This document shows, piece by piece, positions 26,481 to 38,096 of a stretch of DNA of 38,096 nt. Position 1 is the first letter of the stretch, and every line of letters begins with the position of its first letter. The position numbers and the translations under genes are program-made. The notes below the pieces were generated by a model that was given only the letters and a program-made list of their open reading frames with translations, was not told where the DNA came from and did no database searches. The stretch spans positions 1-38,096 of the forward strand of contig JAQXLA010000025.1 in NCBI GenBank assembly GCA_029011315.1. Direction: 5' to 3'. This DNA comes from Desulfovibrionaceae bacterium. Lineage in GTDB: Bacteria > Desulfobacterota > Desulfovibrionia > Desulfovibrionales > Desulfovibrionaceae.

Positions 26481-27215
26481 TTAGACGCGATTCCGTCTGA
26501 TGCTGAAAGGGCAGGCGGAACCGAGGCATTGGTTGTTCAATGGCATTCGGCGGCATTGCGGGGTGGTGAAATTCATGTGAATATGAAAGTGCTTTTCAGC
26601 GAAGAAAACGGCTTCCCGCACGGCAATATAGGAATCTCTTTTGCAGCAGCGCGGGCCGCCGAGCTGTCCAATTTGTGCAAGAGCCTGCGAGGTCATGAGA
26701 TTGGACATGCCCCACGCTTCACGGGCGAGCGGGGTGGATCCGGTAATAAGAGAAACAAAAATCCCCGCGCTGATTCCGGCGCCGCAGGCTCCCCAGAATC
26801 CGCACGCACCGCCCGGAACCTGCCTCCCCCGCCGAATTATCTCCGTCAGTGTTGCAGCAAGATCAATGCGGCCTCCAGCATTGGCGTAGGCTGTCAGCAA
26901 AGCCGCACCGACAAAAATGTGATGTTCCGGACCGTGCATATGGCAAGAGGGGAGAGCCATCAGCTTTTCAAGAATTTCAACAGGATTATCTGATTTTTCC
27001 GCGAGACAGATGCGGAGCACGTCATCAATGTCCTGTATGTGGCAGTCGTCGCAGATGAAATGTCCGTTGAGGCAGCGTGCTGTGCTGAGGATAGTCTTAT
27101 GACAAAGACAGCATTCCATGGATTCACCGTGCGGCAGATATTCCAGATCTGCTCCGCAAATCAGGCATCCTTCGTGTTGAGGGGAGGTGCTGAGAATGAA
27201 TTTTTCGGGTGTCAT
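26481..27215 (-). CDS. DUF5714-type cysteine-rich protein
   Basis: Function unknown. The N-terminal 70 residues carry several metal-type knuckles: CLICG near 15, CCLC near 34 and a CDDC pair near 54. The rest shows conserved blocks that I associate with DUF5714: MHGPEHHIFVGAALLTAY, PGGACGFWGACGAGISAG and GGPRCCKRDSY. The many Cys and His suggest zinc or Fe-S binding in an anaerobe's cytoplasm; this is inference. GAGG lies 6 bases before ATG 27215 (3 before ATG 27218; a GTG at 27227 is also in frame). Upstream of galE on the same strand. Confidence 0.78.
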   Translation of the reverse strand: MTPEKFILSTSPQHEGCLICGADLEYLPHGESMECCLCHKTILSTARCLNGHFICDDCHIQDIDDVLRICLAEKSDNPVEILEKLMALPSCHMHGPEHHIFVGAALLTAYANAGGRIDLAATLTEIIRRGRQVPGGACGFWGACGAGISAGIFVSLITGSTPLAREAWGMSNLMTSQALAQIGQLGGPRCCKRDSYIAVREAVFFAEKHFHIHMNFTTPQCRRMPLNNQCLGSACPFSIRRNRV

Positions 27216-27389
27216 CATGATCCTCACTAAAAAGTTACAGAAGGCTAAAGAGTGTTGATGTTTTCAGGGAATCCATTATGTATTGGACTCTTTTGCCTTG
27301 CAAGCAAAAACAGCGACAACCGGCGACTCTGTGCAGGATGGGATGCTCTGCTTCTTGATCTGCATCGGCTGATGACTCATACTGTTCTC

Positions 27390-33766: not shown

Positions 33767-35218
33767 TCAGCTTTTTCTATCAAGGGATTGGAAGGGGGCA
33801 TGATCTTCGTTTTCGGTCGCGGCGGGGAGCATTTCTTTCAATAAGCTGTGCACTGACTTTTCCGTTAGTTCCCTGTTTGAGAGATTAATAAAACGAATTC
33901 CAATATGTGTCGAGGAACTATCGGCCTTGTAGTCTAGTTTGCATCTATCAGCCATACAGGGGCAATCACTGCAGGATTGACATTCTCCCTTGCAGTTTGG
34001 TTTGCATTCAGACACACAGGGATATAGGAGCACAACCTGCCTGGCGTTGTACTTTTTCTGATAGGCAAACAGCTGATACATATCAGCTTGTGAGATGCCA
34101 TAATTATTCTTCTTACCGTCAAGTTTTTTCCATTTTGTGTCCATCACTATATCGGCTACTCTTGAAGATTCATTCTTTTTCCAAATAACGATATCGGGTT
34201 TTATCCGGAACTTTTGCGGCTCATCAAACAGATAAAGCTTTTTATCCTGCGCAGACAGCTGATATTGATGAGGAAAGTCGGAAGCAAGCACTTTTTGCAG
34301 TTGCGCAGCGATGTAGCTTTCAAATAATTTCTCCATCGGGAACAGCAGGGAGAAGGCTACGCCGGATCCGGAGAAAGGCGTGAAGGTTTTTCCAGTCAAA
34401 AATATTTTGCTCCACATAAGCGCTTTTTGATAGTCGGCAAACTGCCTGTCAAGGACGATTTTGTCAAAATCTTCCTTGTAATTGACAGAGATCTCCACGT
34501 CGGAAAAAGCATTCAGCAGCGTTTTAAGCTTTGCTTTGTTTTTGAATGAAGCTGTGCGCCTGTAAAGATGGTTCAGGGTGGCTTTCAAAATTCTGTTGGC
34601 ACTGTTGTTGGTATTGAACTCATCGTATTCTACAAAGCTGCGTTCCTTATGCGCGTAGTTGCGGCGGATCTGTTCGGCAACGATAAGTTTTCCCTTGAAG
34701 AGTTGTTCATTGGATCGGATTGTTTCGTAGTTGCCCCGCAACCCTCGTTTGACGATGTCGGAGACTTCGTTTGCAAACATGCTGATAAAACATTCAAAGA
34801 TGCTGCTCCTGTCGATGCCCACACTGGCATTTCGTAAAATTTTATATGATTCGCCGCGCAGCGTTTTCAGCATCTCAATCAGGAGATTTTTCGCCTTTTT
34901 TCTCCTCTCTTCTTGCTTTTTATTTGTTATTTGTGTTTTTTCATCATCGGTGAAAATCTTGGGCAAAATCTCTATTAACGTGCCGTCGTTCATCATGATT
35001 ACGCCGACATAATGTTGCGCCGTGATGATTTTGCCAACACCCCTGCGCACAGAAAGTCTCATAAGATCCGGAGTATCGGATTCTTCGGATCTGTTCAGCA
35101 AGATGAATTTTTCCAGAGCGTTAAAGGTCTCTTCTGAAAGGACTGAATTACTAGCTGGATTTCCAGATGAAAAGAATTCGTATTCAGTGATTTGATGAAG
35201 TTTATTCTGTGGACTCAT
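33767..35218 (-). CDS. mcrC: McrC-type nuclease subunit of a type IV restriction system
   Basis: McrC (483 residues) is the nuclease partner that joins McrB rings and cuts DNA carrying modified cytosine. N-terminal part (1-270): VGVIMMNDGTLIEILPKIF and RGNYETIRSNEQLFKGKLIV. C-terminal PD-(D/E)xK core: Asp342 in RIKPDIVIW, then Asp360-Thr-Lys362 in DIVMDTKWKKLDG, and QADMYQLFAY. Unusual: residues 401-426, right after the strand ARQVVLLYP, hold eight Cys (401, 405, 409, 413, 416, 419, 421, 426). Its ATG overlaps the mcrB stop (ATGA). Codons are AT-richer than the neighbouring ispG operon, suggesting acquisition by transfer. Confidence 0.88.
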   Translation of the reverse strand: MSPQNKLHQITEYEFFSSGNPASNSVLSEETFNALEKFILLNRSEESDTPDLMRLSVRRGVGKIITAQHYVGVIMMNDGTLIEILPKIFTDDEKTQITNKKQEERRKKAKNLLIEMLKTLRGESYKILRNASVGIDRSSIFECFISMFANEVSDIVKRGLRGNYETIRSNEQLFKGKLIVAEQIRRNYAHKERSFVEYDEFNTNNSANRILKATLNHLYRRTASFKNKAKLKTLLNAFSDVEISVNYKEDFDKIVLDRQFADYQKALMWSKIFLTGKTFTPFSGSGVAFSLLFPMEKLFESYIAAQLQKVLASDFPHQYQLSAQDKKLYLFDEPQKFRIKPDIVIWKKNESSRVADIVMDTKWKKLDGKKNNYGISQADMYQLFAYQKKYNARQVVLLYPCVSECKPNCKGECQSCSDCPCMADRCKLDYKADSSSTHIGIRFINLSNRELTEKSVHSLLKEMLPAATENEDHAPFQSLDRKS

Positions 35219-37053
35219 TGTTTAGGCACCAGAAAATTGTATGACTCAATTTTATCGAACGCATCATGATTCATCTCATATAATATCAGATTATCTTCAA
35301 TAGGCAGATCATCATCAGAATTTCCGAACAGTTCTTTTTTCAATTGTTCTTTGCAGGTGATAAACTGGTGATCCTGATCTCCTTGCTTCTGGTTATCCCC
35401 CAGCACAAGACGGATTTTCTGATAATCGTCATGAAAATATTCCTGAAGCAGAGGGATTATTTCGTTCTTAAAGATCTGCCCCAGTGCCGTCAGAGTTGCG
35501 TTGTCTTTTAACTTCATAAAATAGGCATGTCCGATTTGGTGATCGCGATCATACAATACGGCAATGCGTTCATTCATCGTTTTCAGTATTTCGTTGACAG
35601 CAATGCCTGAGATCGTGATTCCTTCAAGCAATTTTTCCTTAGGCATAATTTCTTTGAAGTGAAATCGGCGTCTCAGTGCCGTGTCAAGCATGGCGATGGA
35701 GCAGTCAGCGGTATTCATCGTGCCGAGAATATAGACATTGTCGGGGACGCCAAACGGTGTTGTATCATATCTCAGAGAGGTTTTGATCTCTTCCGGCTTT
35801 CCAATACGTTTGGATTCTTCAATCAGAGTGATCAGTTCGCCAAAGATCTTGCTGATGTTGCCACGGTTGATTTCATCAATGATGAAAACGTATTTGGGAA
35901 GGTGCCTTTTGGCGCTAACAGATGATGAGTATTTTGCAATGAGAGACAGCACATCGCGAAGAGCAATCTTCATTTTGTACACAGTTCCTGGTCTCATCAG
36001 TTGTTTGCCGTTTATCTTATAGATGTCTTCTTTGATGCCTTTTACAAGCCATTTGACATTTCTCTTACGACAATATTCTGAATATTCAGCGCACCATTCA
36101 TATTCTCCGGTGATGACGCCAATAGCATCTATGATTTTGTTTGAATAGCAGGAGAAAACAATATCTCCGATTTCCATCCTGTTTATGAAAGCGTCCAGAA
36201 TTGCTTTCCCGCCATTTTCGAAGTTAGTCTCGTCGGTAATATCCGCGCCATAGCTATCCCAGCCGATGCGGATATGCCCATTGTTCAAGCAGTCAGTTCT
36301 GATGGGGTTGTCACCTGCAGAGTATAAGGAAACCTTCCAAACAGTCGAATTTTCATTGAATCCCCATGACAGCAAATCCTGCGAGAAATAGGAGAGCGAG
36401 GCTTTGTCGCAGAATTTTTTGAATAAGCCGTCTTCTCGGTCATAACAGATATTGCCGTTATCATCCGTAACCGGCTTAATGCCTTCGATAAAATCTTCAT
36501 ATCCGTAAGATTGGTGGAAGGTCGTAAAACAGATCTGCCCATCATTCAGATATTGGCGGTATCGTTTAATAACGTCGTCGTATGGTTGAGCCTTGACTTC
36601 CTCAAGCGGCTTGTTTTCGATGATCGCCACTGCATACATGACAGTGTGGTAAGTTTTGCCTGTGCCGGGAGGCCCATAGAGAATGGTATTTTTTCTGATA
36701 TCCGTCATGGTTGACTGTCCCTCTTTATTGGATTTTACATTGTTTTGGATAAACAAACCATATAGATTGTTCATTTGTGAATTCGGATTTGTATACTGCT
36801 GTTTAAATTCGATATATTTTTTTAGATAAGATACATAATCACTTCGATATTTTCTCTCAAGAGCAGATAAATTAGGATTGATTTTATCTGAATTCAATTT
36901 TGTAAGTAATGATGAACAGTGATCGTTACGATATTCATTATCGATATCTACAGAATACGTCGCCTCTATAGTTTTCAGGCCTGAGGCATAGGAACTAGCA
37001 GATTTCATTCCTTGAGATATCATATATTTTATATAATCTTCGCGTGCAAACAT
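35215..37053 (-). CDS. mcrB: McrB-type AAA+ GTPase of a type IV restriction system
   Basis: McrB (612 residues) is the GTP-driven, modified-DNA-sensing motor. N-terminal 1-85 is a small helical module with YIKYMISQGMKSASSYASGL, like the leading domain of other restriction proteins. The AAA+ core has Walker A GPPGTGKT (127-134), Walker B FIIDEINRGN (Asp393-Glu394) and the McrB signature MNTAD at 446-450, followed by Cys where Arg is usual, then ALRRRFHF. Between Walker A and B, about residues 233-362, lies an extra beta-rich piece (VWKVSLYSAGDNP, IRIGWDSYG, MEIGDIVFSCY, AIGVITGEYEW) that looks EVE/PUA-like, the fold that reads modified bases. AGGATT precedes the ATG. Coupled to mcrC. Confidence 0.88.
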   Translation of the reverse strand: MFAREDYIKYMISQGMKSASSYASGLKTIEATYSVDIDNEYRNDHCSSLLTKLNSDKINPNLSALERKYRSDYVSYLKKYIEFKQQYTNPNSQMNNLYGLFIQNNVKSNKEGQSTMTDIRKNTILYGPPGTGKTYHTVMYAVAIIENKPLEEVKAQPYDDVIKRYRQYLNDGQICFTTFHQSYGYEDFIEGIKPVTDDNGNICYDREDGLFKKFCDKASLSYFSQDLLSWGFNENSTVWKVSLYSAGDNPIRTDCLNNGHIRIGWDSYGADITDETNFENGGKAILDAFINRMEIGDIVFSCYSNKIIDAIGVITGEYEWCAEYSEYCRKRNVKWLVKGIKEDIYKINGKQLMRPGTVYKMKIALRDVLSLIAKYSSSVSAKRHLPKYVFIIDEINRGNISKIFGELITLIEESKRIGKPEEIKTSLRYDTTPFGVPDNVYILGTMNTADCSIAMLDTALRRRFHFKEIMPKEKLLEGITISGIAVNEILKTMNERIAVLYDRDHQIGHAYFMKLKDNATLTALGQIFKNEIIPLLQEYFHDDYQKIRLVLGDNQKQGDQDHQFITCKEQLKKELFGNSDDDLPIEDNLILYEMNHDAFDKIESYNFLVPKQ

Positions 37054-37219: not shown

Positions 37220-37561
37220 ATGTTGAGGAAAAATAGAGACTATTATTCATATGAGGACATTATAAAACAATCCTTACTAGCACACAAGTATGCCAGAATT
37301 AAAGGTTCACAAGAAGATGTAGCTACAGTATCCTTGCAGTATTTGTTGTCTTCTTATGCGGAGTTACGAGAAAGTTTCAATGTGCTGATTTCAGAGAAGC
37401 AGCTCGATGTCACTATCAGCCCCGAAGTCAACTATCTTTGCCAGGTTACTGGCAAGAATGGTGAAAGGCCTGATATAGCAGGTTTTTCCGCCAACCGAGA
37501 AGAAAACGTGCTGTGTGAGGTAAAATTTTTTGCTGGGCTGACGGATAATCAACCTAGATAG
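37220..37561 (+). pseudogene. PD-(D/E)xK-type gene truncated by an insertion sequence
   Basis: The first 113 codons of an apparently longer gene. A helical N-terminus (YEDIIKQSLLAHKYARIKGS) leads to ERPDIAGFS and NVLCEVKFFAGLTDNQP, the Asp...Glu-x-Lys core of a nuclease-like domain; related proteins continue after NQP. Here the frame stops two codons later, at TAG 37559, which is inside the insertion-sequence end. It is divergent from mcrB, 166 bases apart, so it probably belonged to the same defence patch. Only a weak AGGAAG is upstream of ATG 37220. The rest of the gene may lie beyond the element, outside the window. Confidence 0.7.
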
Positions 37562-37624: not shown

Positions 37625-38096
37625 ATGCAAGCCGTACACCGCCGTCACGATATATCCGACAGTGTTTGGGAACTTTTGGAACCGCATCTGCCAGGACGCA
37701 AAGGCACTCGTGGCGTGACCGCCCGTGATAATCGATGCTTTCTGAATGCTGTCTTCTGGATACTTCGCACTGGAGCTCCGTGGAGAGATCTGCCCCCCGA
37801 TTATGGGGATTGGAAAAATACCCATCGGCGCTTCTGCCGCTGGAGAGACGCTGGGGTCTGGGAAAAATTACTTGAGATTCTTATCTCAGAACCTGATTTT
37901 GAGTGGCTTATGATTGATGCAAGCCATATCAAGGTGCATCCGCATGCTGCGGGAACACACGGCGGCAACCAGGACATGGGACGCACAAAAGGGGGCTTAA
38001 CTCCAAGATACACCTGGCCGTGGATGCGCATGGTATGCCGGTCAGAATGTTTGTTACATCAGGTACCGCTGCGGATTGCTCGCAGGCTTGCAGACT
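37625..38096 (+). CDS. IS5-family transposase, OrfA frame (partial)
   Basis: Begins HDISDSVWELLEPHLPGR after AAAGGAGGGAGAAT, the usual N-terminal helix-turn-helix part of IS5 transposases, then NAVFWILRTGAPWRDLPP and LMIDASHIKVHPHAAG, which contains the first catalytic Asp of the DDE triad. The frame stays open to the window end, but after 37990 its translation loses family likeness; the real protein continues in the -1 frame. Confidence 0.88.
   Translation, partial: MQAVHRRHDISDSVWELLEPHLPGRKGTRGVTARDNRCFLNAVFWILRTGAPWRDLPPDYGDWKNTHRRFCRWRDAGVWEKLLEILISEPDFEWLMIDASHIKVHPHAAGTHGGNQDMGRTKGGLTPRYTWPWMRMVCRSECLLHQVPLRIARRLAD
37993..38096 (+). CDS. IS5-family transposase, OrfB frame (partial)
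   Basis: After the slippery-looking AAAAGGGGGC (37987-37996) the -1 frame reads GLNSKIHLAVDAHGMPVRMF, the standard continuation of the transposase catalytic domain with the second Asp. A programmed -1 frameshift is normal for this group. The third catalytic residue lies beyond the window. Confidence 0.8.

What the first reader, a model, noticed from the sequence alone, without database searches (positions are those of the whole stretch)
33941..34018. Eight-cysteine cluster inside the McrC nuclease domain
McrC residues 401-426 contain Cys at 401, 405, 409, 413, 416, 419, 421 and 426, directly after a core strand of the PD-(D/E)xK fold and before the C-terminal part. This spacing could hold a [4Fe-4S] cluster or two zinc ions. 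Some Cas4-, AddB- and Dna2-like nucleases use a Cys-ligated Fe-S cluster near the nuclease fold; a comparable cluster in McrC would be unusual and could make restriction redox-sensitive in an anaerobe.
Basis: partly seen in the sequence, partly recalled or inferred. Interest (0 to 1): 0.55.

Follow-up and report, generated by a model that had tools for sequence, protein, structure and literature searches.

The report
Cysteine-rich loop in an McrC nuclease
A bacterial DNA-cutting defence protein (McrC) has a short extra loop packed with eight cysteines that the nearest relatives found here lack; the loop may hold a metal, but nothing here shows that it does.

Summary
An intact mcrC gene (33767-35218, minus strand, 483 aa) codes for Cys 401, 405, 409, 413, 416, 419, 421 and 426 at exactly 33941-34018. 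The cluster is not chance composition. It forms the tip of a beta-hairpin in the PD-(D/E)xK domain, right after the strand VVLLYP. Catalytic residues D342, D360 and K362 are kept. The nearest relatives found (56-57% identical, Clostridia) have a shorter loop there, without cysteine. Of 146 distinct McrC-like proteins read through this loop, 144 have at most two Cys there. The one other clustered case is a very distant McrC (locus L124) with YP-C-x4-C-x3-C-x4-C in the same hairpin. In a tree the two sit apart, each beside Cys-poor relatives, so they look like separate gains. That parallel is the best evidence for a metal site; it is one case. AlphaFold2 gives the loop very low confidence. The arrangement is not that of Cas4/AddB nor the CPxC zinc ribbon of CoCoNuT McrC. 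My best reading is a local metal knuckle, zinc more likely than Fe-S, with a structural role. A loop without metal is nearly as likely. Redox control is untested.

The parts
33767..35218 (-). mcrC, nuclease subunit of a type IV McrBC system, 483 aa
   Evidence: ORF; PF10117 E 1.3e-83; fold match to Thermococcus McrC 6ut7_G, Z 26.2, rmsd 4.0, 388 aligned
33941..34018 (-). eight-cysteine cluster, residues 401-426
   Evidence: Cys positions and coordinates
34019..34039 (-). strand before the cluster, residues 394-400, ending in the common YP anchor
   Evidence: model secondary structure; Y399 in 132 and P400 in 125 of 150 aligned rows
33887..33937 (-). strands after the cluster, residues 428-431 and 438-444; the last matches the relatives' IRFIDL strand
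   Evidence: model; alignment A1
34133..34195 (-). catalytic PD...DxK residues D342, D360, K362
   Evidence: invariant in A2, 17 sequences; D..(D/E)xK intact in 147 of 150 rows
33984..34007 (-). first copy of an imperfect 24-nt repeat (around CKPNCKGE)
   Evidence: 19 of 24 identical to the second copy, 63 nt away; 1 of 3000 codon shuffles as good
33921..33944 (-). second copy of the imperfect repeat (around CKLDYKAD)
35215..37053 (-). mcrB, AAA+ motor subunit, overlapping the mcrC start by 4 bases (ATGA)
   Evidence: AAA_5; NCBIfam McrB model E 2.2e-38, below its cut-off

Best explanation
This is an ordinary-looking McrBC type IV restriction system whose McrC has gained a cysteine-rich extension at the tip of the hairpin that follows the Q/Y-motif helix of its nuclease domain. 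The most likely working is a small local metal knuckle: four of the cysteines (probably among 401-413, the spacing closest to L124) hold one zinc, or less likely an Fe-S cluster, and the other four may hold a second. The knuckle would stiffen a long surface loop and could change how the nuclease domain meets DNA or its dimer partner. Shown: position, rarity, intact catalytic residues, and a second four-Cys cluster in the same hairpin of a distant McrC. Inferred: metal binding, kind of metal, and any effect on cutting.
For: Eight Cys in 26 residues is far beyond chance. The reading frame, both flanking strands and the active site are kept. L124 carries YPCSGNKCSETCSKNKC at the same anchor, the only other case with more than two Cys among 146 proteins. 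The tree puts window McrC with L004/L005/L010 (support 0.973) and L124 with the phage protein L147 (0.999), all Cys-poor in this loop, so the gains look separate.
Against: No relative with the same insert was found, so conservation of the Cys cannot be tested. The L124 cluster is not kept in its one nearer relative, L147 (28.8% identical). The loop is predicted at pLDDT below 50. The 70-aa piece around the insert has no Pfam match at E up to 10, one weak NCBIfam match (E 0.086) that lies after the Cys part, and PDB sequence matches of E 0.21 or worse.
Confidence: 0.42

Rival explanations
1. The loop binds no metal. It is a recent, tolerated expansion of a variable surface hairpin, partly made by a local duplication, and the cysteines have little or no function.
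For: The hairpin varies in length and sequence among the relatives read. An imperfect repeat at 63 nt (19 of 24) was matched by 1 of 3000 codon shuffles and 0 of 500, hinting at a duplication. Very low model confidence. Closest relatives keep intact frames without it.
Against: Eight Cys do not arise from that short repeat alone: the second copy (CKLDYKAD) holds only one Cys. Free thiols at this density are unusual (recalled), and a second McrC has a Cys cluster at the same anchor.
Confidence: 0.33
2. The cysteines hold one or two [4Fe-4S] clusters that make McrC sensitive to oxygen or redox state.
For: CX3CX2C (409, 413, 416) and CX2CX2C (413, 416, 419) spacings are present; that such spacings occur in Fe-S proteins is recalled. 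The genome codes for GcpE/IspG just downstream (that IspG is an Fe-S enzyme is recalled), so Fe-S assembly is likely available.
Against: The layout differs from the Cas4/AddB staple. Zinc fits the same kind of ligands; PMC3466216 itself describes a four-Cys nuclease structure with zinc (passages). Paper searches showed no Fe-S restriction McrC among the papers listed.
Confidence: 0.18
3. Sequencing or assembly artefact, or a decaying gene.
For: Only one genome was seen to carry it; an IS4/5-type transposase ORF lies near mcrB at the window end.
Against: Frame open from start to stop through the insert, strands kept on both sides, active site kept, mcrB open and overlapping by 4 bases; genome reported 100% complete with 0.08 contamination.
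Confidence: 0.05

Closest known systems
McrC of classical McrBC (Thermococcus gammatolerans 6ut5/6ut7, E. coli 6hz4)
   Same: Same overall fold, Z 26.2 to 6ut7_G and 17.7 to 6hz4_M; catalytic D, D, K (alignment; PMC7680126 passages)
   Different: The words zinc and cysteine do not occur in the main text of PMC7680126; the E. coli hairpin begins YPHVDTAVKH, without Cys in the part aligned
Clostridial McrBC of L004/L005
   Same: Nearest McrC found (57% and 56%); McrB 60% over residues 117-605
   Different: Shorter hairpin loop, no Cys there; McrB is 1063 aa, with a long segment that window McrB lacks
   Same: YP-C-x4-C-x3-C-x4-C in the same hairpin
   Different: Very distant (tree distance 4.48), two McrB-like genes beside it, four Cys instead of eight
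Cas4/AddB/Dna2 Fe-S nucleases
   Same: PD-(D/E)xK-type nuclease with a Cys cluster
   Different: One N-terminal plus three C-terminal Cys bind the cluster in Cas4 and AddB (PMC3466216, passages); here one compact hairpin
CoCoNuT CnuC (McrC) with zinc ribbon
   Same: McrC homologue with predicted Zn-binding Cys, so metal in McrC-like proteins has been proposed before (PMC11090510, passages)
   Different: Two or three CPxC motifs there; no CPxC here

Membership tests
McrC (PF10117) | matches the curated profile over its length | tested here: met
   E 1.3e-83, residues 66-400, profile 2-318 of 318
McrC (PF10117) | catalytic D, D-x-K of the nuclease | tested here: met
   D342, D360, K362, invariant in A2
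McrC (PF10117) | paired with an McrB AAA+ gene | tested here: met
   35215-37053, AAA_5 E 6.2e-13
McrC (PF10117) | cuts modified DNA with McrB and GTP | not testable with these tools
   needs purified proteins
Cas4/AddB Fe-S staple nucleases | one N-terminal and three C-terminal Cys around the nuclease core | tested here: not met
   eight Cys in one hairpin; only other Cys is C143, Ile in L004 and L005
Cas4/AddB Fe-S staple nucleases | bound [4Fe-4S] cluster | not testable with these tools
   needs protein
CoCoNuT CnuC zinc ribbon | two or three CPxC motifs | tested here: not met
   no CPxC anywhere in the protein; CPC at 419-421 only
CoCoNuT (PDDEXK_7, PF04411) | match to that profile | tested here: inconclusive
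   no match in the own genome, but none of the 14 control genomes rang either

The most novel reading that the evidence does not exclude
The tip of the hairpin after the Q/Y helix of McrC is a place where metal-binding clusters have arisen more than once, and in this genome an eight-Cys version holds one or two Fe-S clusters that switch or gate cleavage by the nuclease domain.
Probability: 0.1. Interest if true: 0.65.

Novelty: new variant of a known kind. Interest (0 to 1): 0.35.

Why it matters
If the loop binds metal, McrC would join the restriction-type nucleases with a metal knuckle beside the active domain, and the hairpin would be a site where such knuckles evolve anew. If Fe-S, phage restriction could depend on iron or oxygen. 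If not, it is a good example of a striking motif that close relatives do without.

Tried and rejected
Conservation test: not possible for lack of close relatives with the insert. Relatives found and read: all 8 of genome contigs (read), none found in viral contigs with the single sequence, all 9 of viral contigs with the alignment (read), and 6 of the 156 plasmid records (read); none of them carries the cluster. The other plasmid records (163 records) and 21 were not read. For L047 my first script picked a frame that ends before the hairpin; read in the right frame it has one Cys there. The 70-aa piece gave no match in phages. The insert peptide elsewhere in the own genome: only a weak match, E 0.106, with a stop codon in its frame. 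A window-spaced Cys pattern in viral contigs gave 43 stretches, none with an McrC-like ORF at E up to 10. The L124 protein gave no relative in viral contigs, no other match among 63 genomes of its order, two weak plasmid hits and one phage hit whose hairpin has no Cys. Tandem Repeats Finder: nothing; the repeat was seen only by a self-comparison script. PADLOC had no match for McrC. I considered that the loop equals the dimer-contact loop between beta10 and beta11 of Thermococcus McrC (PMC7680126, passages), but could not map that numbering, so I make no claim.

Rows dropped: 2 of 165 loci had no McrC-like ORF; 4 of 150 distinct ORFs did not reach the anchor columns and were left out of the 146; 3 of 150 were too gappy for the tree. 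For L047 the row in that set is the wrong-frame ORF named above. The set holds fragments, near-duplicates and a frame-broken MAG gene (L006), so the 146 are not independent. Not all PF10117 hits were read.

Full report
The finding is real. mcrC runs from 35218 down to 33767 and its 483-residue product has Cys 401, 405, 409, 413, 416, 419, 421 and 426 at 33941-34018, as stated. Against the Cys content of the other 34 ORFs of a mechanical set from the window (some of them doubtful) the cluster has a probability of 3e-8 per place, and random placing of the protein's nine Cys gave it in 0 of 200,000 trials.

The protein is an McrC. PF10117 matches residues 66-400 at E 1.3e-83, phmmer finds Thermococcus gammatolerans McrC at 7.2e-23, and the AlphaFold2 model (mean pLDDT 77.4) matches 6ut7_G with Z 26.2, rmsd 4.0 over 388 residues. 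D342, D360 and K362 are invariant in alignment A2 of 17 sequences. mcrB overlaps the mcrC start by four bases and carries AAA_5. The pair has lower GC (0.43 and 0.40) than the downstream ispG (0.57; GcpE by Pfam). The three genomes listed as of the same genus have no PF10117 match, and 40 of 288 genomes of the family do, the window's own included. The nearest McrC and McrB found are clostridial. All this suits a horizontally gained cassette; that is inference.

Where the cluster sits. The strand 394-400 ends in the common YP anchor; then comes the Cys segment; then strands 428-431 and 438-444, the last matching the IRFIDL strand of the relatives. L004, for example, has a shorter stretch between YP and that strand, without Cys. 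So the cluster is an extension of a hairpin tip, not a separate domain. An imperfect 24-nt repeat at a distance of 63 nt (19 of 24) links CKPNCKGE to CKLDYKAD. Codon shuffles of the segment reached that in 1 of 3000 and 0 of 500. It hints at a local duplication but explains few of the Cys.

How unusual. At I held 165 loci, of which 163 had an McrC-like ORF, 150 of them distinct. In 146 the anchor could be placed. Cys counts in the next 30 residues: none in 103, one in 30, two in 11, four in L124, eight in the window. Its C-x4-C-x3-C-x4-C resembles C-x3-C-x3-C-x3-C of window residues 401-413. In a tree of 147 of the 150, window McrC groups with L004, L005 and L010 (0.973), L124 with a Ruminococcus phage protein, L147 (0.999), and all of these neighbours are Cys-poor in this loop. 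I read this as two separate gains at one spot. I noticed L124 by looking for Cys-rich tails, so the coincidence of place is a lead rather than a planned test.

Metal or not. No relative carrying the same insert was found, so the usual test, conservation of the ligands, is not available. The model has pLDDT below 50 at 406-426; with no metal and no homologue covering the insert that is expected either way. The 70-aa piece around the insert has no Pfam match at E up to 10, and its PDB sequence matches have E 0.21 or worse. The Cas4/AddB arrangement described in PMC3466216 (passages) is not met. The zinc ribbons with CPxC motifs of CoCoNuT CnuC described in PMC11090510 (passages) are not met either, though they show that Cys metal sites in McrC homologues have been proposed before. 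Paper searches for McrC with iron-sulfur (20 of 39 papers listed), McrC with cysteine and zinc (20 of 131), McrBC with zinc ribbon (8 of 8), McrC with Fe-S cluster and restriction endonuclease (1 of 1) and restriction endonuclease with iron-sulfur cluster, phage defense and redox (1 of 1) showed, by titles and abstract starts, no report of an Fe-S restriction McrC.

Verdict. A new variant of a known kind: an intact McrC with a cysteine-rich hairpin tip. A local metal knuckle is my best explanation at 0.42, with no metal at 0.33 and Fe-S with redox control at 0.18. Metal content of the purified protein would settle it.

Noticed in passing
window 37625-38095 (+): Transposase ORF of the IS4/5 kind (DUF4096, E 1.8e-27) running to the window end, near mcrB.
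   Followed up: partly
window 37220-37561 (+): Short ORF with PDIAGFSANREENVLCEVKFFAG, which looks like a PD-(D/E)xK nuclease piece to my eye; no Pfam match. Perhaps a defence gene cut by the mobile element; not tested.
   Followed up: partly
window 35215-37053 (-): McrB has 264 residues between its GPPGTGKT and IIDEINR motifs, as long as in L004 and L007 McrB (271-272), so a domain seems inserted in the AAA+ core of this whole group; window McrB lacks the long N-terminal-side segment (about residues 85-569) of L004 McrB.
   Followed up: partly
window 26484-27227 (-): DUF5714 protein (E 1.2e-67), the next most Cys-rich ORF of the set from the window, up to 6 Cys in 26 residues.
   Followed up: no
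L209 7473-12547 (-): The L124 McrC lies beside two different McrB-like AAA genes.
   Followed up: partly
L006 3983-6798: Relative whose mcrC frame ends inside the same hairpin while the expected next strand (VTVRVEFIDLF) starts the following ORF; a MAG with N stretches, so perhaps an error.
   Followed up: no
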